Part shown: positions 334-10,950 of the stretch, piece after piece
Layout: every line of letters starts with the position of its first letter
Position numbering within the stretch: position 1 is the stretch's first letter
Assembly (NCBI GenBank): GCA_021803885.1
Contig: JAJZKY010000092.1
Span: 1-10,950 of the forward strand
Direction: 5' to 3'
Source: Planctomycetota bacterium
GTDB lineage: Bacteria; Planctomycetota; Phycisphaerae; WQYP01; JAJZKY01
Length of the DNA stretch: 10,950 nucleotides
Notes under the pieces: generated by a model
Databases searched by the model: none
What the model saw: only the letters and a program-made list of their open reading frames with translations
What the model was told of the DNA's origin: nothing
Made by a program: the position numbers and the translations under genes

Positions 334-1323
334 ATGAAGGGCACTCGCTTCTTTATCGTCGGCGGCGCGGGCTTTATCGGCAGCCACTTTACAGATCGAC
401 TCCTTGCCGATCAGGCTACTCAACGAGTCACTGTATACGATAACTTCTCATCGGGCCGGGAATGGCATTTGGAACACCATAGAGACGACCCAAGGCTCGC
501 AGTCGTTTGTGCTGACGTAAAGGATCTGCCGCAACTGACCGCCGCCATGGATGGCCACGAAGTCGTCATTCATCTAGCCTCGAATCCAGACATTGCTCGC
601 GCCGCGACCGAACCGGATATCGATTTTCGTGAAGGGACCTATCTGACGTCAAACGTTCTGGAGGCAATGAGGGTCACGTCGGCCGAGCGCCTCCTTTACG
701 CGTCTGGGAGCGGTGTTTATGGCGATATCGGATCTATCGAAGCCACCGAAGATTTTGGGCCGCTAATCCCTATCTCGACTTACGGCGCGAGCAAGCTGGC
801 TGGAGAGGCGCTCATTAGTTCCTATTGCCATATGTGCGGACTGTCCGCTCGTGTCTTTCGTTTTGGCAATGTTGTGGGCCCACGGCAAACACATGGAGTA
901 GGTTTTGACTTCCTCAGGGCACTGCAGACTGATCCAACCCGCTTGCTCATTTTGGGCAATGGCTTGCAAAGCAAATCTTACATCCACGTCGCAGATGTAA
1001 TCGACGCTGTGCTATATGCACATGAACATGCTCAGCACCGGTTCCGTTCTTATAATGTTGCGACTGGCGACTATATTACTGTGAGTGAAATAGCCCGCCT
1101 TGTATGCCAGTGTGCAGGTCTGGATTCCGAGCAGGTTGCCTTTACCTTTACGGGAGGAGACCGGGGATGGAAGGGCGATGTGCCGATCGTCCGCCTAAAC
1201 ACTGATCGTATTCGCGCGCTTGGCTGGAAGTGTTCGCGGTCTTCCGAAGAGGCCCTCAGGGCCGCAGTACTGGCCATGCTGAGTGAAGCCGATCGTCTTT
1301 ATGTCAAGGCGGGGTTGGTATGA
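334..1323 (+). CDS. NAD-dependent sugar-nucleotide epimerase (extended SDR)
   Basis: This 329-residue protein is a complete extended short-chain dehydrogenase/reductase of the NDP-sugar epimerase group. The Rossmann glycine motif GGAGFIG is at residues 10-16. Asp36 after the second strand (VYDNFSSG) favours NAD over NADP. The catalytic region has Ser124/Ser126 in ASGSGVYG and the Tyr150-xxx-Lys154 pair in YGASK. The Asp-Glu pair that 4,6-dehydratases carry next to the catalytic Ser/Thr is absent, so an epimerase is more likely than a dehydratase. The C-terminal GDRGWKGD segment is of the kind seen in homologues encoded beside heptose kinases. The ATG at 334 has a GAGGA ribosome site at 323-327. 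The stop overlaps the start of the kinase gene by 4 bases, indicating one operon. The substrate is probably GDP-D-glycero-D-manno-heptose or its product; this is inferred from context only. Confidence 0.9.
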   Translation: MKGTRFFIVGGAGFIGSHFTDRLLADQATQRVTVYDNFSSGREWHLEHHRDDPRLAVVCADVKDLPQLTAAMDGHEVVIHLASNPDIARAATEPDIDFREGTYLTSNVLEAMRVTSAERLLYASGSGVYGDIGSIEATEDFGPLIPISTYGASKLAGEALISSYCHMCGLSARVFRFGNVVGPRQTHGVGFDFLRALQTDPTRLLILGNGLQSKSYIHVADVIDAVLYAHEHAQHRFRSYNVATGDYITVSEIARLVCQCAGLDSEQVAFTFTGGDRGWKGDVPIVRLNTDRIRALGWKCSRSSEEALRAAVLAMLSEADRLYVKAGLV

Positions 1324-2303
1324 TTATTACTCGCAGTCCACTTAGGATTTCACTGGGAGGTGGCGGAACCGACCTGCCATCGTATTATCGCGAACATGGT
1401 GGTTTCCTGATTTCCGCGGCCATTAGCCAGTACGTCTATATCACCATTAATGAGGCGTTTCGGCCGCGGATCATTTTGAAATATTCGAAATTAGAGGATG
1501 TCCAGAATGTGGACCAGATCGAACACCCGATAGTGAGAGAAGCCCTAAGAAAGCTCAATATTGTAGGGCCATATCTTGAGATCGTCAGCATATCCGATAT
1601 TCCGGCTGGAACCGGCTTGGGATCCTCTGGAAGTTTCACAACCGCGCTGCTTCGAGCCTTGCACGCATTGAAGAACGACTTTATCCTTCCAGCGGAGCTC
1701 GCAGAGGAAGCCTGTCAGATTGAAATTGACCGATTGAGTGAGCCGATCGGAAAGCAAGACCAATACATTGCCGCATTTGGCGGAATCACCAGCTTTCAGT
1801 TCGCCCCCGATGATGAAGTAATTGTAGAGCCCTTGAAGTTACAGCCCGAGGTGCTGGCGAATCTGGAAGATAACATGCTGCTGTTCTTCACTGGATATGC
1901 TCGCTCCGCCTCTAACATTTTAAGAGACCAGGAGGTGCGCACGCGTCAGAATGACAGCGACATGCTAGCTAATTTGCATTATGTAAAGCAGTTGGGCCTG
2001 CAGAGCCGCGATGCGTTGTTGGCGGGAGACTTGAGGCAGTTTGCTGAATTGATGCACGCTCACTGGCTGCATAAGAGGACACGTTCTCCTGGAATGAGCA
2101 ATGCAGCAATCGATGAGTTGTATGAGTTGGCGCGGACAAATGGCGCTCTCGGCGGTAAATTGATTGGAGCGGGAGGGGGAGGATTCCTTTTGTTCTACAC
2201 AGAAAATAAAACCCAGCTTCGACGGGCACTTCGTGTGGCGGGCTTGCGCGAGGTTCGTTTTCGATTCGATTTTTCTGGCACGGCAGTTCTAGCTCATTCG
2301 TGA
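1320..2303 (+). CDS. hddA: D-glycero-alpha-D-manno-heptose-7-phosphate kinase (HddA)
   Basis: This 327-residue GHMP-superfamily kinase would phosphorylate D-glycero-D-manno-heptose-7-phosphate at C1 to give the alpha-1,7-bisphosphate. It is the committed step toward GDP-heptose. The N-terminal substrate motif RSPLRISLGGGGTDLPSYY is at residues 5-23. The ATP-binding loop PAGTGLGSSGS is at 95-105. GKQDQYIAAFGG at 144-155 supplies the probable catalytic Asp147, and the third GHMP motif KLIGAGGGGF is at 280-289. Length and motif order match the HddA family, and I see no lesion. The ATG lies inside the epimerase stop (ATGA), so translation is probably coupled. The guanylyltransferase starts inside this gene's stop. 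Family-level assignment is strong; exact specificity is supported mainly by the neighbours hddC and gmhB. Confidence 0.91.
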   Translation: MIITRSPLRISLGGGGTDLPSYYREHGGFLISAAISQYVYITINEAFRPRIILKYSKLEDVQNVDQIEHPIVREALRKLNIVGPYLEIVSISDIPAGTGLGSSGSFTTALLRALHALKNDFILPAELAEEACQIEIDRLSEPIGKQDQYIAAFGGITSFQFAPDDEVIVEPLKLQPEVLANLEDNMLLFFTGYARSASNILRDQEVRTRQNDSDMLANLHYVKQLGLQSRDALLAGDLRQFAELMHAHWLHKRTRSPGMSNAAIDELYELARTNGALGGKLIGAGGGGFLLFYTENKTQLRRALRVAGLREVRFRFDFSGTAVLAHS

Positions 2304-3016
2304 GTGAAAGAATGTTAACTGTGGCGATACTTGCAGGTGGCTTGGCGACGCGCTTACGGCCACTAACCACCATGACCCCCAAGTCTCTCATTGAGGTGAA
2401 TGGAGAACCATTCATCGTACACCAGCTGAGACTCTTACGCGTAAACGGAGCGCGACGCGTTGTATTATGCGTTGGTCATCTGGGTGAAATGATTGAGGAA
2501 ATCGTCGCCGATGGAGCCGCATTCGGCCTAGAGGTGAGCTACTCGCATGATGGGGACTCGCTTTTGGGAACCGGAGGGGCAATCAAGAAAGCTCTGCCCT
2601 TATTGGAGGAATCATTCTTCGTTGCGTACGGAGATTCCTATTTGCCGTGTAACTATGAAGCGGTTGCAGCAAGTTTTGAAAAAGCAAAAAAGCAGGCGCT
2701 TATGACCGTATTTTGGAATAAGAATAGGTGGGACACCAGCAACGTAGAATTCAACGGCCATGACATTATTGCGTACGATAAGCGAAGCCGTTCGCCAAGA
2801 ATGCAGTTTATCGACTACGGATTAGGGGTGTTCCGTGCTGAGGCACTTGCAGCAGTAAGAAATGATCCGCCATTTGACCTGGCAGATGTATACCGGGATC
2901 TGCTCACCCGCGGGGAGTTGGCGGGTTTTGAAGTCCGTCAAAGATTTTACGAGATAGGATCAAAGGATGGTCTGAACGAAACTGCGGCCTACCTGGCGCG
3001 AGCGGCAAGGAGATAA
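2300..3016 (+). CDS. hddC: D-glycero-alpha-D-manno-heptose-1-phosphate guanylyltransferase (HddC-like)
   Basis: This nucleotidyltransferase of the GT-A-like NTP-transferase fold joins a nucleotide, presumably GMP, to heptose-1-phosphate. The signature AILAGGLATRLRPLT is at residues 9-23 with PKSL following. GTGGAIKKA at 90-98 and the metal-binding GDS at 111-113 (VAYGDSYLP) are present. The protein is 238 residues and appears complete. The start is ambiguous. GTG at 2300 overlaps the kinase stop (GTGA) and gives a 4-residue extension. ATG at 2312 (MLTVAILAGG) would bring the signature to the usual distance from the N-terminus. Assignment as HddC rather than a glucose-1-phosphate or mannose-1-phosphate transferase rests on the hddA and gmhB neighbours. 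Confidence 0.87.
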   Translation: MSERMLTVAILAGGLATRLRPLTTMTPKSLIEVNGEPFIVHQLRLLRVNGARRVVLCVGHLGEMIEEIVADGAAFGLEVSYSHDGDSLLGTGGAIKKALPLLEESFFVAYGDSYLPCNYEAVAASFEKAKKQALMTVFWNKNRWDTSNVEFNGHDIIAYDKRSRSPRMQFIDYGLGVFRAEALAAVRNDPPFDLADVYRDLLTRGELAGFEVRQRFYEIGSKDGLNETAAYLARAARR

Positions 3017-3606
3017 AGCCACTCGAGAGCGGTTTTGTTGACCGGTATTTGCGAGAGATCGTAAAGAATGTTGGACAGTTGAGCACAGCACCAATCGAGG
3101 AAACAGCTAGTGTGCTGAGGCAGACATGGTCCAGTGGCGGGGCGCTGTTTATCCTAGACGTCGGCGGCACCGCATCACTTTTATGTAACGCGGCGAGCAA
3201 CTTCCGGATAATTGCAGGAATCGAGCCTTAGAGCGCGATCGAAGAGTTGTCACAATCAGTTCGGTAGGAACACAAATCTGTGGTGGGGAGTTGGCTGAAG
3301 ACGCGTCAAATAGAGGCGAGCGATACCATGATCGCTTTGTCAATTTGCGGAGGGAATGCCGATGCAAATGTCAGTCCGAGAATAGTGACTGAACTAGTTT
3401 CGGTCGAGCGAACGGGAGCCGGTGGGGTCGGCATCGCGGGTGAAAGCGGAGATGTCGTGGAGAGAGTCGCAGATACGCTGCTTATGATTCCTAGCGTACA
3501 TCCGGCTGATAGCGTGCCACAGGGTGAGGCCATTTAATCCGTGGCGTTGAGCTTGATTGTCCGCGATTCGCTGGTGAAGGTAAAAGGAACGGGACGGGAG
3601 CTCTTT
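3013..3606 (+). pseudogene. Decayed SIS-domain phosphoheptose isomerase (gmhA-like)
   Basis: One frame across this gap aligns with the intact SIS protein encoded at 8714-9313. FVDRYLREIVKNV matches YVSRYLQEVAEIA, GGALFILDVGG matches GGRLFVLGVGG, NFRIIAGIE matches DFRKIADIE, and LSICGGN matches FSVGGGN. LIVRD near the end matches LIVSD. The frame has stops at 3229-3231 (TAG), 3265-3267 (TAG) and 3535-3537 (TAA). No ATG or GTG stands at the expected start; ATA at 3013 and CTC at 3022 are there instead. The sugar-phosphate loop and the C-terminal HAESFQAVVWH are lost. All pieces stay in one frame, so point substitutions and small in-frame deletions, not frameshifts, killed the gene. It sits between hddC and gmhB, where an isomerase would be expected. 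Confidence 0.85.
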
Positions 3607-3609
3607 GTG
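3596..3609 (+). promoter_or_regulatory. Ribosome binding site and GTG start of gmhB
   Basis: GGGAG at 3596-3600 lies 6 bases before GTG at 3607. This is the site that decides the gmhB start. Translation from 3607 begins VKTKPQLKRAVFFDRDG, which places the HAD motif at the usual distance. The in-frame sequence upstream (3541-3606) is instead the tail of the dead isomerase. Confidence 0.7.
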
Positions 3610-4185
3610 AAAACAAAGCCTCAGCTCAAACGAGCCGTGTTTTTCGACCGAGACGGTGTACTCAACCGAGCATTTGTGCGCAACGGCAAGCCTTATCCTC
3701 CAGCCACAATAGCGCAATTTGAAATTGTGGCTGGCGCGCGCGATGCGCTCCGTGATCTTAAGCGCGAGAAGTTCCTGCTCGTGGTAGTTACCAATCAACC
3801 TGACGTTGCGCGCGGGACGCAGTCTCGCGACACTGTTGAGCAAATGAATGAGATACTTACCTCACTTCTTCCCATCGACGATGTCTTTGTGTGTTACCAT
3901 ATAGATGAAGACAACTGCAATTGCCGAAAGCCCAGCCCAGGACTCCTGCTACAAGCTGCCAAGGAACATGGAATCGATTTGTATAGAAGCTTTATGGTAG
4001 GAGATCGATGGCGGGATGTGGAAGCAGGCTACAACGCTGGCTGTGAGACGATTCTCATCGACTATGGGTATGATGAAAAAGTTGCGGAGCGGAGCCCCAC
4101 TGCTCGCGTCAAGAGCGTAAGCGATGCAGCAAGGTGGGTTATCCAGCGCATTGGAAGAGAAGCAAATCCTGCGATTTTGTTGTAG
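3607..4185 (+). CDS. gmhB: D-glycero-D-manno-heptose-1,7-bisphosphate 7-phosphatase (GmhB)
   Basis: This 192-residue HAD-superfamily phosphatase removes the 7-phosphate from heptose-1,7-bisphosphate, giving the 1-phosphate used by HddC. Residues are counted from GTG 3607. Motif I is FFDRDGVLN with nucleophile Asp14 and acid/base Asp16. Motif II is VVTNQ with Thr62. Motif III is CRKPSPG with Lys108. Motif IV is VGDRWRDVEAG with Asp133 and Asp137. Cys96, His98, Cys104 and Cys106 (CYHIDEDNCNC) form the zinc-binding loop typical of GmhB. The GVLNRAFVRNGKPYPP segment after motif I and TNQPDVARGTQSR are also family-like. The open frame extends back to 3541, but those residues match the C-terminus of the SIS protein, so the shorter start is preferred. 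No strong terminator is visible after the stop. Confidence 0.9.
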   Translation: MKTKPQLKRAVFFDRDGVLNRAFVRNGKPYPPATIAQFEIVAGARDALRDLKREKFLLVVVTNQPDVARGTQSRDTVEQMNEILTSLLPIDDVFVCYHIDEDNCNCRKPSPGLLLQAAKEHGIDLYRSFMVGDRWRDVEAGYNAGCETILIDYGYDEKVAERSPTARVKSVSDAARWVIQRIGREANPAILL

Positions 4186-4341
4186 AAATGAGCTTGGTTA
4201 GTTTCAGTGCTGTCGGAGAGTCCTCTGTGTTTTATTTATGTCGTTTTTGCCTTACCCATCTGTATTTGTCGAGCGTGCCGATTCCGGCTCAAGGAAGGTA
4301 ATTGTTCGGATTCGGCGGGCTGTTACTCTGCGAGCATGTAG

Positions 4342-4793
4342 TCGCTGGTTGAGGGAAACGCCCGACTACGGCAAGAGGTGGCGGAGTTGAAGCTTGCCAA
4401 CGAGCGCTCGGAGCGCCGGGTGGAACGTTTGTTGCACGCATTGGAAGAGGTGCGCCGGGCCGGGAAGCGCCCGACGGCGCCGTTCTCGCGTCAGGAGCTG
4501 AGGGCCCATCCACCCAGGTCAGGGCAGAAAGCGGGAGCCGGATCTGGATGCCGTAGCCGCCGTGGGATCCCTGCTACGATCGACGAAACGCTGGAAGCGG
4601 AACTGCCGGGCTGTTGGCCGCACTGCGGCGGGGAGTTGGAAGAGACCAGGATCGAGAAGACGTACTAGACCGAAATGCCGCAACTCAAGGTGGAACGGAT
4701 TGAGTGTCGCATTCATGTTGGCCGGTGCAAGCGATGCGGACGGCGGGCGCTGTCACCACATCCGCGCCAGACCTCGGATGTGGTGACAGCGCC
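4342..4793 (+). pseudogene. IS66 family transposase TnpC, N-terminal fragment
   Basis: The frame reads LVEGNARLRQEVAELKLANE, the leucine-zipper-like coiled coil at the start of IS66 TnpC. It continues through RRAGKRPTAPFSRQE to CWPHCGGELEETRIEKTY, then a TAG at 4666-4668 where relatives have Gln. After the stop, in the same frame, come VERIECRIHVGRCKRCGRR and PHPRQTSD. The paired Cys motifs CxxC (HCGG region and CKRC) are the IS66 zinc finger. The middle (about 4520-4570) diverges and may carry compensating small indels. Nothing of the DDE catalytic domain follows; the fragment ends at the palindrome at 4746-4793. It is a dead, 3'-truncated copy. Confidence 0.85.
4746..4793. repeat. Perfect 19-bp inverted repeat (palindrome) at a junction
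   Basis: GGCGCTGTCACCACATCCG at 4746-4764 and its exact reverse complement at 4775-4793 are separated by 10 bases. The left arm encodes part of the IS66 TnpC zinc-finger region. The right arm starts exactly where that protein stops matching its family (QTSDVVTAP instead of the usual QTSDALGAA). On the other side begins the opposite-strand ParB-like fragment. The right arm may be an inverted copy of the left, made when the two fragments were joined. Confidence 0.85.
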
Positions 4794-5016
4794 GGCCTGG
4801 CATATAGGTGTGCGCGCGGTGGTGTTGCTCAAGCGCCGCCACCCGCTGGCAGCCGTCGAGCACCGGGTAACGATCAGCATGTCCGGCGGCCATCACGACG
4901 ATCGGCGTCTGATGACCGCTGGCCGCCAACGACGGCAACAATCGCCGATGCCGCTCCGGCTGGCGCACGCGAAGGTGCTTGAGACGCCGCTGAAGTTGAT
5001 GGAATTCTAGACGCAT
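4794..5016 (-). pseudogene. ParB/Spo0J N-terminal-domain protein, truncated
   Basis: On the minus strand, from ATG 5016, the frame reads MRLEFHQLQRRLKHLRVRQP, then RRLLPSLAASGHQTPIVVMA and YPVLDGCQRVAALEQHHRA. This matches the beginning of ParB-like nuclease-fold proteins, in which GQQTPVVV and LIDGYKRVRAL are characteristic. I recall such proteins being encoded with IS21-type transposase modules in Acidobacteria. Only about 70 residues remain. The domain stops at the palindrome, and the HTH part is absent. It is certainly a relic; whether it belonged to a transposon or to a partition-like gene cannot be told here. Confidence 0.7.
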
Positions 5017-5395
5017 GGTCCGCAGCCCCTCGACAGCTCCACTCTGCACCAGCTCTGATCTGGGATTGCGCGGAGCGAGCCGGTAGGGCTCCCATAACGC
5101 CCAAGCAATCAGCGCCTTGCATCCCACACTCGGATCGTGCGATGTCCCAGGGAAGGCGATTCAGCGGGGGCGGTAATCACAGCGGTTCTGGCGGCTTGTC
5201 GCTGGCGCCGCGGGCCTGGATCCGGTGCCCGCGAAAATAATCCGGATTCCGCGCTCGCCAACAAGCCTGCTTCCGGCAACGCCGCAAGGACTGGCACGCC
5301 GGCTTACTGCAAGCCCATTGTCGGGAACCAACTCGATTGTCGGGATGGAACCAGCGATGGCAGATACAACAAGGGCGCTTCCGGGCAACGGGCAT
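5010..5395 (-). pseudogene. Cys-rich small protein associated with mobile modules, interrupted
   Basis: From ATG at 5395 on the minus strand the frame reads KRPCCICHRWFHPDNRVGSR, then CSKPACQSLRRC and ARNPDYFRGHR. The CxxC...CxxxxC arrangement suggests a small zinc-binding domain. A TGA at 5177-5179 interrupts it. The same frame then continues as LPPPLNRLPWDIARSECGMQ and GADCLGVMGALPARSAQSQI, which also resembles the C-terminal half of this family, so the stop is probably a recent CGA-to-TGA type change. The ParB-like fragment lies directly downstream on the same strand, as in the intact modules I remember. The function of the family is not known to me, and the 3' limit is approximate. Confidence 0.6.
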
Positions 5396-5465
5396 GATGA
5401 GCCGTCATCTCCGTCACGTCAGCAGATTTTCAGTTGCACCCTTGATTACAGGGCTGGTGGGTCAA

Positions 5466-6359
5466 TTCTCGATAGCATACCTGAGACAATCCACGATAGC
5501 GCCGAAGGCTTCTGTCTCATCGATCGCGCCTTCGGTATGAGCTACTACTGGAGCGTGAACCAGTGCAAATGCGCTACCGACATCGTGTCCCGCATACAGG
5601 CCGGTCTCCAGCTTTTGTATGAGAACTTCGGCCGGACCGCAATCCGCACCGTCAAACCCGACAACATCGCCCGCCTTCCTGGGGTGCAAACTCGACGCTC
5701 GCTACCAGGGCGGGCCGGGAAATCGTCTCAATGTCCGCATCGAAGGAAGGCGGATCAAACACACCATGGGGCCGGTATCGCTGAAGCTTTACGACACGTT
5801 AGGTCTCAGTCGGCGCATTGAACCCACGGTCAACTTTAGGACCTTCTTCAAGCACTACCGCGAGCTAGAGCACCGCGATGGCTCGCGCGAAACCCAATGG
5901 GCCGCCAAGCAGAAGTCCGTTTACGGCCTGCCCGTGCCGCCCTAACTGCTTCACGCTGCCAATCGCCGCTACCTCCAGTTCCTCTCTGCCTGGAAGATTT
6001 TCGCAACGGGCGACACAAACTCAACAAGGTGTCGCCACCGGTCGAGCATGAAAGCCGCAGCTATCCCGGCCTTAACCCCTTCGACCTGGACAACGATCCG
6101 CTCTTTTAAAGCTATCGCACGAGGCGGGTTCAACATCAGCGGGTTGCAGAACAAAAGCCTGCGCCGCAGCTTAGCCGGCCTATCCAACGCTCAGGTCTTC
6201 CGCCCGTCCAAACCCCTGCGTCTGCACCTCTGATCAAGAAGATCGGCAGCACTTACATGTGCGGTCTGGCCCTGTTTGACAAACAGACGTTGACATCGGA
6301 TTGAAACTGCGTGAACTGGTTGCAATCCTTTAACTCAACATCGCTCACGCGGCATAGCT
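5466..6359 (+). pseudogene. C-terminal two thirds of a decayed hypothetical-protein family
   Basis: Several frames join to give one protein-like path. First come MSYYWSVNQCKCATDIVSR and AIRTVKPDNIA. A frameshift near 5670 leads into LDARYQGGPGNRLNVRIEGR, RIKHTMGPVSLKLYDTLGL and TVNFRTFFKHYRELEHRDGS, ending in a stop at 5943-5945. Then, in other frames, follow AANRRYLQFLSAW, SRSYPGLNPFDLDNDPLF (stop), ARGGFNISGLQNKSLRR, LIKKIGSTY and finally LKLRELVAIL. I recall this architecture from a large hypothetical-protein family repeated in Acidobacteria and Deltaproteobacteria genomes, about 450-500 residues long and ending in a winged-helix-like segment. At least four frame changes or stops make this copy dead. 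An N-terminal piece of the same family lies at 8339-8578. Confidence 0.72.
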
Positions 6360-6469
6360 CAACGATGTCCTGCCCGCTCTGCGCGGATTGTTAATGGAGG
6401 GGTCCTACAGGCGTTCAGTGTCACCCTGTTTGAGAAAACGTCCACTATTAAAGGCGAAAAGGAATACCA

Positions 6470-7192
6470 ATGTTAACACTCTCTGAATTGCGAATTAAGG
6501 TTTTCGCTGACGGTGCTGACTTTGAAAGCATGATGAGACTATATGCGAAACCCTACATCAACGGCTTCACCACCAACCCGACGCTGATGAGAAAAGCTGG
6601 TATCAAGGATTACGAGGCGTTCGGAAAAAAGATTCTGGCAGCGATTCCTGACCGCCCGATCTCGCTGGAAGTCTTCGCCGATGACTTCCCGAGCATGGAA
6701 AAGCAGGCTCGCGTCATCGCCAGTTGGGGCAGCAATGTGAATGTCAAGATACCTGTAACCGACACGAAAGGCAAGTTCAGCGGAGAGCTGATTCGCCGCC
6801 TGTCCGCTGAGGGAATCGCGTTAAATGTCACGGCCATCATGACCTTGGATCAGATCGTCCGTGTTTCCGAAGCCTTGGACCCGAACACGCCTGCGATCGT
6901 CTCGGTGTTCGCGGGGCGGATTGCTGACACAGGAGTCGATCCGGTGCCCCTCATGACAGAGGCACTGAAGATCCTCACAATACGCCCCAAAGCCGAATTA
7001 CTGTGGGCTAGCCCGCGTGAATTGCTCAACATTTTCCAAGCCAACAAGTTAGGAACGCACATTATTACTGTCACGCCGGATCTTCTACAGAAGCTTGATA
7101 ACGTGGGATACGATTTGAATGCGTTTTCCCTCGACACGGTTAAAATGTTTTATAACGATGCCATGGCGAGCAATTTCTCAATTGAAATCTAG
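6470..7192 (+). CDS. Transaldolase family protein (small, FSA/TalC-like)
   Basis: This intact 240-residue class I aldolase is of the short transaldolase / fructose-6-phosphate aldolase type. The probable Schiff-base Lys93 is in NVNVKIPVT. FADGADFESM (residues 12-21) and GFTTNPTLMRKAG (32-44) carry the conserved Asp and the TTNP signature. SLEVFADD (65-72), GIALNVTAIMTLDQ, SVFAGRIADTGVDP, ELLWASPRELLN and HIITVTP follow in the expected order. AAAAGGA at 6457-6463 is 6 bases before ATG. The gene is isolated between a dead hypothetical gene and a dead IS630 but shows no lesion, suggesting it is under selection. Transaldolases interconvert sedoheptulose-7-phosphate and other sugar phosphates, and sedoheptulose-7-phosphate is the entry point of the heptose pathway encoded at 334-4185. 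A dedicated role there is inferred; a general pentose-phosphate or aldolase role is the alternative. Confidence 0.9.
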   Translation: MLTLSELRIKVFADGADFESMMRLYAKPYINGFTTNPTLMRKAGIKDYEAFGKKILAAIPDRPISLEVFADDFPSMEKQARVIASWGSNVNVKIPVTDTKGKFSGELIRRLSAEGIALNVTAIMTLDQIVRVSEALDPNTPAIVSVFAGRIADTGVDPVPLMTEALKILTIRPKAELLWASPRELLNIFQANKLGTHIITVTPDLLQKLDNVGYDLNAFSLDTVKMFYNDAMASNFSIEI

Positions 7193-7235
7193 CCTAATGC
7201 GCCTGAAATAGGAACGATTAGGATTGCGTTTCGTC

Positions 7236-7261
7236 CATACTGTGGAGAACGGCACAGTATG
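7236..7261. repeat. 9-bp hairpin overlapping the IS630 start codon
   Basis: CATACTGTG (7236-7244) and CACAGTATG (7253-7261) are perfect inverted copies around an 8-base loop. The last three bases are the ATG of the decayed transposase. The hairpin could mask the transposase start, or be an element-end structure, or act as a weak terminator for the transaldolase. There is no T-run to favour the last option. Confidence 0.5.
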
Positions 7262-8266
7262 CGCACAGCGGCCCCAGTTCGATTGAATCCGGAACAGAGG
7301 ACAGCCCCAGAGCGGATTGCGCGGCAGCGCTCGCTACACGCGCGGTTGGTCGAGCGGACGCCTTTTGTGCTGCACGCTGGTGAAAGTCTGGAGAACAAAC
7401 AGATTCCCGCGCAGATGGGCATTATGACAAAGAAAGTAGCGCCGCGGCGGAGCCGCTTTCTCGATGGCGGCATAGCTGCGCTGGCGAAGAACACTTCCCG
7501 GCCAGGTAGAACTCGCACCATCACAAACAGCCGCATGAAACACGTGGTGGAGATGACACTGCATCGCGAGCCGGCCAACGCCACGCACTGGAGTACACGC
7601 ACGATGGCGGCTTCCATAAGCATCAGCGAGGCGAGTGTGCGCCGCATCTGGCGTGCGCACGGATTGAAACCGCATCTGACGAGGACCTTTAAGCTCAGCC
7701 GCGATCCTGAGTTCTCCGCAAAACTGGAGAATATCGTCGGCTAGTACCTGAATTTGTCCGAGCATGCCGTCGTGCTATGCGCCGACGAGAAGAGCCACAT
7801 TCAGCCTTTGGATTGCGCCCAGCCAGGGCTGCTCATGAAGAAGGTTTGCTGCGGCACCATGACACACGACTACAAGCGCAAGGGCGCCGCGGCTCTGCTT
7901 GCGGACCTCAATGCCTTGGAAGGCAGGGCGATTTCCATGTGTGACGGCTGCCACCGCCACCAGGAATCGCTGAAGTTCCTACGCGGAATCGAGTACGTGG
8001 TTCCAGGCGACAAGCAGGTTCACATGATCGTGGATAATTGCGCCACGCACGAACACCCCAAGGTCTAGCGCTAGCTGGCTCGCCATCCGGCCTTCCACAT
8101 GCACTTCACGCCTACCGGTTGCTCGTGGCTCAACATAGTAGAGCGGTTCTTTCGCGGCCTGACGGAGAATCAACTGCGCCGCGGCGTTTTCCGCAGCGTC
8201 AAAGAATTCATCGCTGCTATCGACGAATACATCGATCGCCACAATGAGGACCTTAACCCGGAATAG
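7259..8266 (+). pseudogene. IS630 family transposase, inactivated by in-frame stops
   Basis: A single frame from ATG 7259 encodes a nearly full-length IS630 transposase. The N-terminal HTH region (LENKQIPAQMGIMTKKVAPRR) is followed by ATHWSTRTMA and SEASVRRIWRAHGLKPH. The DDE domain has Asp in LCADEKSHIQ, Asp in MIVDNCATHEHPKV, and Glu in CSWLNIVERFF. RRGVFRSVKEF and DRHNED close the homology. Stops occur at 7742-7744, 8066-8068, 8072-8074 and 8264-8266, all TAG, with no frameshift needed. The first stands where relatives have Leu in GLYLNP, the third where they have Trp in RWLARHP. All three catalytic residues are still encoded. I could not define convincing terminal inverted repeats. Confidence 0.88.
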
Positions 8267-8338
8267 CCGAAACCAAAGAGACCGTTGGTTATCATTTCTC
8301 GCTGGACATCGAACTTCTGACCGAGATTTTCGACTTAG

Positions 8339-8578
8339 ATAGCAGGAGTGCTGAGCTGCTGGGACCGGGTGCTGATTTTTGGCACCCTGCCGAAGATATG
8401 CTACGCCGATCAAATCACCTCGTAGCTTTGCGAGCGGACGGTGCGGATCTTCGACGCTTCGCGACTCGCCAAGCCGTTCCGCGATGAGATGCGCGAGAAC
8501 GGGGAGCGGCTGGCGGCCGAGGCCGGCATCGAAATCGAGTTCATCCGCTAGCGGAACTCTTGCAAAGAAGAGCGGGTG
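8339..8578 (+). pseudogene. N-terminal fragment of the same hypothetical-protein family
   Basis: The frame reads IAGVLSCWDRVLIFGTLPKI, then CYADQITS, a TAG at 8423-8425, RTVRIFDASRLAKPFRDEMR and ENGERLAAEAGIEIEFIR, a second TAG at 8549-8551, and RNSCKEERV. As I recall it, this is the N-terminal 80 or so residues of the family whose C-terminal part lies at 5466-6359. The homology stops at about 8578, and the sequence that follows leads into the isomerase gene. Order and spacing exclude a simple insertion that split one gene, because the N-terminal piece is downstream of the C-terminal piece on the same strand. Confidence 0.65.
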
Positions 8579-8713
8579 AGAAAAAGGTCTACCCGTTCTG
8601 TGCAGAATCTCAATAAAGAGGTACTAACTTATCTCGATGACAGATCAGGTCCGGCTAGCCGGAGGCATCGCTGCGAGATGTGTATGAATCTCAAGAGAGA
8701 AAGGCACCGTTCA

Positions 8714-9313
8714 ATGGAGACTTATGTTTCTCGCTATCTGCAGGAAGTTGCAGAGATAGCAAAGCAAATCGATCAGCGGCAGGTACAAGGGATAATCGAT
8801 GTCCTCATCGAAACCCGGAATCATGGCGGACGCCTGTTTGTTTTGGGCGTTGGCGGTGGGGCAGGCAACGCAACCCACGCGGTAAACGATTTCCGCAAGA
8901 TTGCCGACATAGAAAGTTATGCGCCAACGGATAATGCGAGTGAACTCACTGCGCGGGTCAACGATGACGGCTGGGACACGAGCTTTTCGCGCTGGCTGCA
9001 GGGGAGTCGGCTGCGTAAGGGTGATACGTTGCTGGTCTTTTCGGTAGGGGGAGGCAATTTGAAAAGGAACGTCAGTGCTAACATCGTGAAAGCGCTGGAA
9101 CTGGCGCAGAAGGTGGGAGCAAAAGTCACCGGCATTGTGGGGAGAGACGGAGGTTACACCGCAAAGGTCGCCGCCGCGGTAGTAGTTATCCCTACACTTT
9201 CGAGTGATACGGTCACGCCGCACGCAGAAAGCTTTCAGGCCGTGGTCTGGCACCTGATCGTCTCTGATCCGCAACTAAAGAAAAACGAGATGAAATGGGA
9301 GTCAACGAAGTAG
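8714..9313 (+). CDS. gmhA: Phosphoheptose isomerase-like SIS protein (GmhA-like), intact
   Basis: This 199-residue sugar isomerase (SIS) domain protein is expected to convert sedoheptulose-7-phosphate to D-glycero-D-manno-heptose-7-phosphate. The N-terminal helix YVSRYLQEVAEIAKQI is followed by the sugar-phosphate loop GVGGGAGNATHAVNDFRK (residues 45-62). DDGWDTSFSRWL (84-95), the second phosphate-binding turn FSVGGGN (109-115), IVGRDGG (141-147) and the C-terminal PHAESFQAVVWH (169-180) follow, in GmhA order and at GmhA length. The frame is open from GTG 8576, but the first 46 codons derive from the hypothetical-family relic. I chose ATG 8714, which has GAGAGAAAGG at 8695-8704 and gives a family-like N-terminus. 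It is the intact counterpart of the dead copy at 3013-3606. Specificity versus other SIS isomerases is inferred from context. Confidence 0.87.
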   Translation: METYVSRYLQEVAEIAKQIDQRQVQGIIDVLIETRNHGGRLFVLGVGGGAGNATHAVNDFRKIADIESYAPTDNASELTARVNDDGWDTSFSRWLQGSRLRKGDTLLVFSVGGGNLKRNVSANIVKALELAQKVGAKVTGIVGRDGGYTAKVAAAVVVIPTLSSDTVTPHAESFQAVVWHLIVSDPQLKKNEMKWESTK

Positions 9314-9333
9314 CTCAAAATTGTCGCTACTTC
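9307..9333 (+). repeat. Hairpin over the stop codon of the isomerase gene
   Basis: GAAGTAGC (9307-9314) and GCTACTTC (9326-9333) are perfect inverted copies separated by 11 bases, and they span the TAG stop at 9311-9313. Only a weak T-bias follows (TTCTTG), so this is a possible but unconvincing terminator. It may instead protect the 3' end of the transcript. Confidence 0.4.
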
Positions 9334-9472
9334 TTGAAGGAACCTCGGAATATGTCCCTTGTTCTGCAATTGGACAAAACATAACTGCTGGTTAAGGGAC
9401 GGCGGCCTGAACAGATGCACTTGCGACGGCCTGGATCTAGCCTCGCTATCCACTAAATAACTGGAAGCGCCA

Positions 9473-10413
9473 ATGGTAGGCCCACAGGCAGGGCGCGAAG
9501 CTGTGCCGTTGTTTCGCGCCGCTGCGGAATGCTCGGAGCGGCATGCCTGTAAGCAGTTGGAAGTATGCCGGGCGATGGTGCGGTATAGCCCACGCGCCAC
9601 GCGTTTTGCCTCGGTAAATGAGCAGTTGCGCGTACGTCTGCGCGAGTTGGCTGACCAACGAAATCGCTGGGGCTACCGGCGACTGCATATTCTGCTTCGC
9701 CGTGAAGGATGGACCGTGAACACCAAGCGACTGTACCGGATCTGCGTTGAGGAGCGGCTGGCGGTGCGCCGGCGCAAGCGCGGACGGCGCATCGGCGCCC
9801 AGGCACGCGTCTTGCTTGACACTTCGACACTTCTGAACCAGATCTGGACGATGGATTTCCTGCAGGTGCACTGGCAAATGGGCGCAAGTTCCGCGCTCTG
9901 TCGATCGAGGATGCCTTGAGCCGCGAGATGCTGGCCATCGAAGTAGATACATCATTGCCCGCACTGCGTGTTGTGCGTGTGCAGGAGACGCTGCGGACTA
10001 AGCGCGGTCTGCCGAAACGAATCGTAATTGACCACGGCACTGAGTTCATTGTGAAGGTGCTCGACCAGTGGGCCTACGATAACAAGGTCAAGCTGCACTT
10101 TATCATCCCGGGAAGGCCGATGGAGAACGGCTACATCGAGAGCTTCCGCGGCAAGTTCCGCGAGAAATGCTTCAACCAGCACTGATTCCTGACACTAGAC
10201 AATGCCCGCGAGACGATTGAAACCTGGAGAGTCGATTACAACCAGGTGCGCCCACACAGCGTGCTGGGCTATCTGACACCGGAGGAGTTCGCAATGCGCT
10301 ATGCAAATGTGGAAAGCAAACTGCGTTTCCCTCATTCACACAGCCCCGGCGGCGGTTGCGGAATGACTTTGCAGCTAAACTCAAATTCTGGTGCTCTCAC
10401 TTACCTAGACTAA
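9473..10413 (+). pseudogene. IS3 family (IS407-like) transposase OrfB, frameshifted
   Basis: The first frame has RNRWGYRRLHILLRREGWTV, then TKRLYRICVEERLAVRRRKR and WTMDF with the first catalytic Asp. A one-base change around 9855-9875 moves the frame to LANGRKFRALSIEDALSREM, which continues through RGLPKRIVIDHGTEF (second Asp) and GRPMENGYIESFRGKFREKC (catalytic Glu). A TGA at 10183-10185 stands where relatives have Trp. In the same frame TWRVDYNQVRPHSVLGYL and TPEEFAMRY follow to a TAA at 10411-10413. The order matches the rve-type DDE domain of IS3 OrfB. OrfA is missing upstream, so the left end of the element is lost. Two lesions make it non-functional as a single protein. Confidence 0.9.
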
Positions 10414-10418
10414 CCGAA

Positions 10419-10430
10419 GGGGGCAGCTCA
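10419..10430 (+). repeat. Right terminal inverted repeat of the IS3 element
   Basis: GGGGGCAGCTCA ends 17 bases after the transposase stop and resembles the GGGGGCAGGTCA-type right ends of IS407-group elements. The sequence on its right switches abruptly to an IS66 tnpB frame on the opposite strand, which fixes the element boundary close to 10430. No matching left end (TGAGCTGCCCCC) was found upstream of 9473. Confidence 0.65.
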
Positions 10431-10544
10431 ATCGCAGCCCAGATGGTCCCGCACCAGACCATAAAGACCGTTGAAGAAGTTCCTCATGTCTGTCGTTCCG
10501 GTCGCTACGTAGATCCGCGTCGCCGGCCCAAATCCAAACGGCAC
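10428..10544 (-). pseudogene. IS66 family TnpB, N-terminal fragment cut by the IS3 element
   Basis: From GTG at 10544 (minus strand) the frame reads PFGFGPATRIYVATGTTDMR, then NFFNGLYGLVRDHLGCD, and stops. This is the start of the IS66 accessory protein TnpB (compare GLGPGTRVYLAVGATDMRKG and GLYGLVR). The match ends where the IS3 right end begins; the apparent stop at 10428-10430 is made from that terminal repeat. It was not in the supplied list of longer frames because of its 38-residue length. It starts 1 base after the stop of tnpA, the usual tight IS66 arrangement. Confidence 0.85.
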
Positions 10545-10545
10545 C

Positions 10546-10756
10546 CTACGCCTGCTCCAGCACGCTCAGCAGGCGCTTCAACGTCTCGTCGTCGAATCCG
10601 CCACCCACCTCGATCCACCGTCGCTACGCTCAGCCCGCGGCCGGCGCAGAAAGCCGGTCGCGTCAGTCCACTGGCTTCACACTCGCCAACCAATTCCTCC
10701 ACCTCGGCCTGGCTCAGCCGGCGGCGCACCGACTTTATCGCTCCTGTTTCGCCCAT
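10546..10756 (-). pseudogene. IS66 family TnpA with internal deletion
   Basis: From ATG 10756 (minus strand) the frame reads RRRLSQAEVEELVGECEASG, then LTRPAFCAGRGLSVATVD, the helix-turn-helix part of IS66 TnpA. The frame then shifts, and the C-terminus appears as VGGGFDDETLKRLLSVLEQA followed by TAG at 10546-10548. The middle, about 50 residues in relatives, is missing at about 10605-10615. Read straight on, the first frame gives only a low-complexity Arg/Gly-rich shadow. Both ends of the gene survive and it abuts tnpB correctly, so this was once a normal IS66 operon reading leftward. Confidence 0.82.
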
Positions 10757-10950
10757 GTCCTCAGCAAATCGCCGATCCACTACACGAGAACAGGTGTGTT
10801 GCTCTGACGGATACCATCTAATAGATGACTGGCCAACCATTTGCTGCGCGAGGACTCCCATGTTCGCTTTTCTCGACTCCCGGGCCTGGATACGGTCATG
10901 TGCCGCGCCGAGCAGGCGATTCGACAAAGCAAGGTAAAATGCGGCCATCG
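10757..10950. other. Window edge, no gene identified
   Basis: The minus-strand frame of tnpA is open through this stretch to the window edge, but the translation upstream of the Met at 10756 matches nothing I recognise. It is most likely the leader or left flank of the IS66 element. I did not see the typical IS66 terminal repeat. Confidence 0.4.

What the first reader, a model, noticed from the sequence alone, without database searches (positions are those of the whole stretch)
3013..9313. Operon isomerase is dead, a displaced intact copy sits about 5 kb downstream
The SIS isomerase gene between hddC and gmhB carries three in-frame stops and has lost its sugar-phosphate loop. An intact relative lies at 8714-9313 among dead transposases. 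The two share clear block-by-block similarity. This looks like replacement of a pathway step by a paralogue or a transferred copy, followed by decay of the original. Without the distant copy the GDP-heptose pathway would lack its first enzyme.
Basis: partly seen in the sequence, partly recalled or inferred. Interest (0 to 1): 0.7.

Follow-up and report, generated by a model that had tools for sequence, protein, structure and literature searches.

The report
Dead isomerase half, intact substitute nearby
In what looks like an acidobacterial sugar operon, one half of a two-part enzyme has decayed while the other half stays open, and a pair of genes of another lineage a few kilobases away includes an intact version of the missing enzyme.

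Summary
The SIS copy at 3013-3606 has three in-frame stops and keeps 30 of 64 near-invariant family columns; the intact copy at 8714-9313 keeps 63. First: the dead copy is not a separate gene. In the closest operon found (L234) SIS and GmhB are one fused protein, and the window aligns to it in a single frame over 375 columns. So a SIS-GmhB fusion lost its first half, while GmhB stays open and constrained. Second: the intact SIS is not a displaced operon copy. With the transaldolase at 6470-7192 it matches an adjacent TAL-SIS pair of another heptose-type cluster (82% and 86% to L194), and tree tests reject putting either with the resident type. No relic of the resident transaldolase was found. 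Best reading: a transferred TAL-SIS pair, later split by IS630 debris, took over two steps. Untested: the window's genome is not held, so sole supply, order of events and a chimeric assembly remain open. Of 17 genomes with the fusion, 9 carry a further gmhA-like gene; the nearest, G639, does not. A new variant of a known kind.

The parts
334..1323 (+). NAD-dependent epimerase/dehydratase family gene (EPI), first gene of the resident operon
   Evidence: PF01370 E 2e-43; 78% to L234
1320..2303 (+). HddA-like GHMP kinase
   Evidence: NF049969 178.8 bits, cut-off 600; 80% to L234
2300..3016 (+). HddC-like nucleotidyltransferase
   Evidence: PF00483; several NCBIfam transferases under cut-off, MurU 126 bits best, HddC 74; 66% to L234
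3013..3606 (+). dead SIS half of a former SIS-GmhB fusion; stops 3229-3231, 3265-3267, 3535-3537
3541..4185 (+). GmhB-like HAD phosphatase, the surviving half; longest open frame starts at GTG 3541, likelier start GTG 3607
   Evidence: TIGR01656 129 bits, TIGR00213 104.6 bits; 67% to L234 GmhB half; codon positions as in controls
3596..3609 (+). GGGAG (3596-3600) six bases before GTG 3607: candidate new ribosome site and start for GmhB
   Evidence: sequence printed; inference
4378..5010 (+). IS66-like transposase debris, where the resident transaldolase would be expected
   Evidence: resemblance recalled; no Pfam or NCBIfam match
6470..7192 (+). transaldolase (TAL), first gene of the type B pair
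   Evidence: TIGR02134 350.5 bits over cut-off 281.95; 82% to L194; tree 100/94* with G786
7259..8269 (+). IS630 transposase remnant, four in-frame stops, splits TAL from SIS
   Evidence: NF033545 in two pieces of one frame; translation
8714..9313 (+). intact SIS isomerase, second gene of the type B pair
   Evidence: PF13580; 86% to L194, 85% to L195; trees
9473..10320 (+). IS3 transposase remnant, frame changes near 9870
   Evidence: NF033516 in two frames; translations

Best explanation
The resident operon was EPI-HddA-HddC-[SIS-GmhB fusion]-TAL (type A), as in L234. A TAL-SIS pair of another heptose cluster type (type B; in L194 the order is HddA-GmhB-HddC-TAL-SIS) came to lie next to it, probably by IS-mediated transfer or recombination. 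With transaldolase and isomerase supplied by the newcomer, the resident TAL was lost and the SIS half of the fusion decayed by missense and three stops, while the GmhB half stayed under selection and is now probably translated from its own start (GTG 3607 or 3541). An IS630 element split the newcomer pair. What is left would make sedoheptulose 7-phosphate (TAL), isomerise it (SIS), phosphorylate it (HddA), remove the 7-phosphate (GmhB) and transfer a nucleotide (HddC): a mosaic pathway. Shown: decay, fusion ancestry, type B descent of TAL and SIS, constraint on the intact parts. Inferred: transfer, order of events, enzyme activities, the new GmhB start, and that the intact SIS serves this pathway.
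For: The L234 fusion aligns to the window in one frame over 375 columns (52%) with only a 3-aa and a 1-aa gap; 9 of 117 distinct adjacent SIS-GmhB pairs are fused. Among 104 of 153 pairs of 18 operons whose HddA are 70-82% identical, SIS is 71-83% (median 76); the dead half is 35-42% to those 18, while the window's HddA (61-80), HddC (58-66) and GmhB (52-67) look ordinary. Differences at codon positions 1/2/3, window against L234: SIS .48/.36/.64, GmhB .26/.16/.62; control L234-L247 SIS .21/.10/.62. Intact SIS .12/.06/.59 and TAL .15/.09/.56 against L194. Intact SIS groups with G786 at 100/93* and 100/98*, TAL with the same genome at 100/94*. Holding SIS with type A: AU p 2e-7; TAL with type A: p 9e-5. 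No match above chance to three type A TAL in 4186-6469. Each genome with a family SIS (63 of 348; 5 of 80; 30 of 150; 17 of 17) had one such copy, so two lineages side by side is unusual.
Against: The tree cannot place the dead half: end branch 10; with type A its support is 92/86 (unstarred), and grouping it with type B is not rejected (p 0.36). Its orthology rests on synteny, frame and best hits. The AU groups were named after the trees were seen; a first, ill-chosen type A set was itself rejected as one clade (SIS p 0.025, TAL p 2e-6). The window is probably one whole metagenome contig (10,950 is the longest contig holding P0002 and P0121) with the junction in IS debris, so a chimeric assembly is not excluded. 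9 of 17 fusion-bearing genomes have a further gmhA-like gene.
Confidence: 0.66

Rival explanations
1. Another gmhA-type gene elsewhere in the genome does the isomerisation; the dead half was redundant for that reason and the intact SIS at 8714-9313 is incidental.
For: A further SIS of 28-36% identity or a gmhA-model match is found in 13 of 14 and 9 of 17 genomes.
Against: The nearest genome, G639, has no other gmhA-model match. The intact SIS is constrained and paired with a transaldolase where the resident one is missing.
Confidence: 0.15
2. Two clusters coexist: TAL and SIS are the near end of a complete type B cluster beyond the contig end, and the type A operon is dying piece by piece.
For: TAL-SIS is the end of a type B cluster in L194; SIS and TAL of type A are gone.
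Against: EPI, HddA, HddC and GmhB of type A are open and show normal codon-position patterns. In L194 the other type B genes lie upstream of TAL, and the 2.3 kb upstream of TAL here holds no relic of them.
Confidence: 0.1
3. The contig is a chimera joined at IS elements, and the two halves come from different genomes.
For: The junction lies in IS debris; no fetched genome had both types.
Against: The IS copies are degenerate, which makes a repeat-driven join less likely; G+C of the two sides is alike. P0121 (the GmhB that starts after the last stop) and P0002 are each counted in 2 contigs, which may however be the same assembly held twice.
Confidence: 0.07
4. The intact SIS is a duplicate of the operon SIS made within this genome.
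For: Both are SIS of the same wide family.
Against: Intact SIS and its TAL neighbour are 86% and 82% to another genome's pair; holding it with type A SIS is rejected (p 2e-7).
Confidence: 0.02

Closest known systems
Xenologous gene displacement (term as found in the listing; those papers were not opened)
   Same: A resident pathway gene is lost while a homologue of another lineage is present
   Different: Here one half of a fused enzyme is lost, the newcomer is a two-gene pair, and it lies 5 kb away instead of in place
[quoted passage not shown]
   Same: Same four enzyme types together, plus a transaldolase that could make the substrate
   Different: All four are under the NCBIfam equivalog cut-offs; the nucleotide and the product are unknown
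GmhA, sedoheptulose 7-phosphate isomerase (PDB 2i2w, 2i22, 1tk9)
   Same: Best sequence and fold matches; D59 and H180 of the intact copy align with a conserved Glu/Asp and His of gmhA-like SIS
   Different: 52.8 bits against the TIGR00441 cut-off of 209.45; six extra residues after the second glycine loop
SIS-GmhB fusion proteins of Acidobacteria-related genomes (L234, L110, L111 and others)
   Same: Window 3034-4149 aligns in one frame with the 391-aa L234 fusion
   Different: The SIS half carries three stops here; no fused relative fetched shows a stop there (stops_inside 'none' for all 17)

Membership tests
Pseudogene (resident SIS half) | Reading frame broken | tested here: met
   Three in-frame stops
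Pseudogene (resident SIS half) | Constraint lost relative to neighbours | tested here: met
   30 of 64 conserved columns kept; lowest other of 154 rows 58, intact copy 63; codon positions
Descendant of a SIS-GmhB fusion | Same frame and no stop at the domain border | tested here: met
   the last stop 3535-3537 lies inside the SIS half
GmhA (TIGR00441 equivalog), for 8714-9313 | Score over the curated cut-off | tested here: not met
   52.8 of 209.45 bits
GmhA (TIGR00441 equivalog), for 8714-9313 | SIS fold like GmhA | tested here: met
   Foldseek ranks 1-29 are GmhA or annotated so, TMq 0.64-0.70, one of them titled only hypothetical protein; the model is weak (pLDDT 66)
GmhA (TIGR00441 equivalog), for 8714-9313 | Isomerises sedoheptulose 7-phosphate | not testable with these tools
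   needs an assay
Xenologous replacement | Newcomer of another lineage than the lost gene | tested here: met
   AU tests, (groups named after the trees were seen)
Xenologous replacement | Newcomer does the lost gene's work and nothing else does | not testable with these tools
   own genome not held

The most novel reading that the evidence does not exclude
The fusion shielded the frame. While SIS and GmhB were one protein, frameshifts and stops in the redundant SIS half were purged because they would have killed GmhB, so the SIS half decayed by missense and in-frame deletion alone; the stops came after GmhB gained its own start. An estimated 175-200 substitutions without a frameshift suggest it. 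Against it: three stops is just what unshielded neutral decay predicts (mean 3.3-3.7 in the simulation), and the IS630 remnant beside it also shows stops but no frameshift that I saw over about 1 kb.
Probability: 0.2. Interest if true: 0.6.

Novelty: new variant of a known kind. Interest (0 to 1): 0.42.

Why it matters
It would be a worked case of replacement acting on half of a fused enzyme: a two-gene module takes over two steps, one domain of a bifunctional protein dies and the other survives as a separate gene. It shows how a mosaic pathway and a reversed gene fusion can arise together, and warns that a 'dead gene' inside an operon may be a dead domain. It also points to a GmhA-like SIS family, fused to GmhB in some Acidobacteria-related genomes, that has no curated model of its own in the libraries searched.

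Tried and rejected
Displaced paralogue: rejected by TAL and SIS trees. A distinct SIS lineage rather than decay: the dead half keeps 30 of 64 conserved columns and its nearest row in the second tree is the SIS of G639, the genome with the nearest operon. A first protein search with the dead half gave nothing. Reassigned stop codons: GmhB, TAL and SIS themselves end in TAG, so TAG is a stop here. Frame shielding as main reading: the stop simulation did not support it. Relics of type A TAL or type B HddA, GmhB, HddC between 4186 and 6469: none. Promoter and terminator scan of 4100-9500: below shuffle expectation, not used. Structure model of the intact SIS: weak (pLDDT 66), used only for fold rank. 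Literature: searches gave no paper on a SIS-GmhB fusion or its decay in their listings; of PMC7705670 and PMC10680097 I saw passages only, of the other papers only the listing.

Full report
What is there. The window holds EPI (334-1323), an HddA-like kinase (1320-2303), an HddC-like nucleotidyltransferase (2300-3016), a broken SIS stretch (3013-3606), a GmhB-like phosphatase (frame 3541-4185), IS debris, a transaldolase (6470-7192), an IS630 remnant, an intact SIS (8714-9313) and an IS3 remnant. The transaldolase passes its NCBIfam cut-off (TIGR02134, 350.5 against 281.95 bits); HddA, HddC, GmhB and SIS are under the equivalog cut-offs, so their exact substrates are inferred.

The dead copy. 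It has stops at 3229-3231, 3265-3267 and 3535-3537 and is 33% identical to the intact SIS over 186 aa. Of 64 columns kept by at least 95% of 154 SIS proteins it keeps 30; the intact copy keeps 63 and the lowest other row 58. Lost residues include D59 and H180, which align with conserved acidic and His positions of gmhA-like SIS; that Glu and His (or Gln) are catalytic in GmhA is from passages of PMC7705670.

It is half of a fusion. A class-wide and family-wide search led to operons in which the SIS frame is 324-477 aa long. Of 117 distinct adjacent SIS-GmhB pairs 9 are one open frame; 17 genomes picked for long frames were then checked (G762's contig ends early). The nearest operon is L234 (genome G639): EPI 78%, HddA 80%, HddC 66%, GmhB 67%. 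Its 391-aa SIS-GmhB protein aligns to the window in one frame over 375 columns with gaps of 3 and 1 aa. In the 108 unfused pairs a stop follows within 48 bases of the SIS alignment end; in the window none follows the SIS end until the end of GmhB. So the dead stretch is the first half of a former fusion.

Decay against constraint. Among 18 operons, 104 of 153 pairs have HddA 70-82% identical; their SIS are 71-83% identical, median 76. The dead half is 35-42% to the same 18. Codon-position differences against L234 are .48/.36/.64 for the dead half but .26/.16/.62 for GmhB.19/.10/.63 for HddA and .28/.21/.63 for HddC; the control L234-L247 SIS gives .21/.10/.62. The third position is alike throughout; only the dead half has lost the protection of positions 1 and 2. 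A neutral simulation down to 50-55% retention needs about 174-202 substitutions and gives 3.3-3.7 stops; three are seen. No frameshift is seen. GmhB can be read from GTG 3541, straight after the last stop, or from GTG 3607 with GGGAG six bases before it; the latter is my guess.

The intact SIS and the transaldolase. The nearest SIS in a genome is G786 (L194), 86%, then G001 (L195), 85%, then Granulicella L002, 76%; the next are 71% or less. In L194 the order is HddA (47%)-GmhB (34%)-HddC (32%)-TAL (82%)-SIS (86%) on one strand, TAL and SIS about 55 bases apart. The window keeps TAL before SIS on one strand with an IS630 remnant between. In trees SIS groups with G786 at 100/93* and 100/98*, TAL with the same genome at 100/94*. 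Holding SIS with the type A clade costs 65 log units (AU p 2e-7), TAL 91 (p 9e-5). These groups were named after the trees were seen, and a first badly chosen set was not a clade. Both genes look constrained (.12/.06/.59 and .15/.09/.56). No match above chance to type A TAL was found in 4186-6469, nor relics of type B HddA, GmhB, HddC.

Limits. The tree cannot place the dead half (branch length 10; support 92/86 with type A, AU p 0.36 for type B). The window's genome is not held. In 17 fusion-bearing genomes, 9 have a further gmhA-model match (107-208 bits, none over the cut-off), 8 have none, G639 among these; in 14 other relatives 13 have a further SIS match, and the nine of these proteins that I scanned score 118-211 bits on gmhA, one over the cut-off. 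Completeness of these genomes is not given. Every genome with a family SIS had one copy (63 of 348; 5 of 80; 30 of 150; genomes overlap; 17 of 17). The contig may be chimeric; its two counted contigs for P0002 and P0121 may be one assembly.

Verdict. The better account is a type A operon with a SIS-GmhB fusion whose SIS half has died, beside a type B TAL-SIS pair that can supply both missing steps. Interest is moderate: ordinary forces, an instructive case.

Noticed in passing
L195 (G001:C228) 1834-2363: The transaldolase next to the type B SIS lacks its middle (query residues 58-157 unmatched, 110 bases between the pieces) and faces the SIS: it looks broken.
   Followed up: no
window 7259-8269: IS630 remnant with four in-frame stops and no frameshift that I saw, a decay pattern like that of the dead SIS half.
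   Followed up: partly
window 9473-10320: IS3 remnant that changes frame near 9870.
   Followed up: no
window 4742-4797: 23-base inverted repeat, 96% complementary, 10 bases between the arms, inside IS66-like debris.
   Followed up: no
L119, L122, L127, L151: Type A HddC genes without SIS directly beside them; these genomes carry one family SIS on another contig.
   Followed up: partly
L248 (G771) 10054-10897: HddA is found in two pieces 35 bases apart, so it may be interrupted there.
   Followed up: no
window 10505-10948: Weak match to an IS66 accessory protein on the minus strand (20.8 bits, cut-off 28).
   Followed up: no
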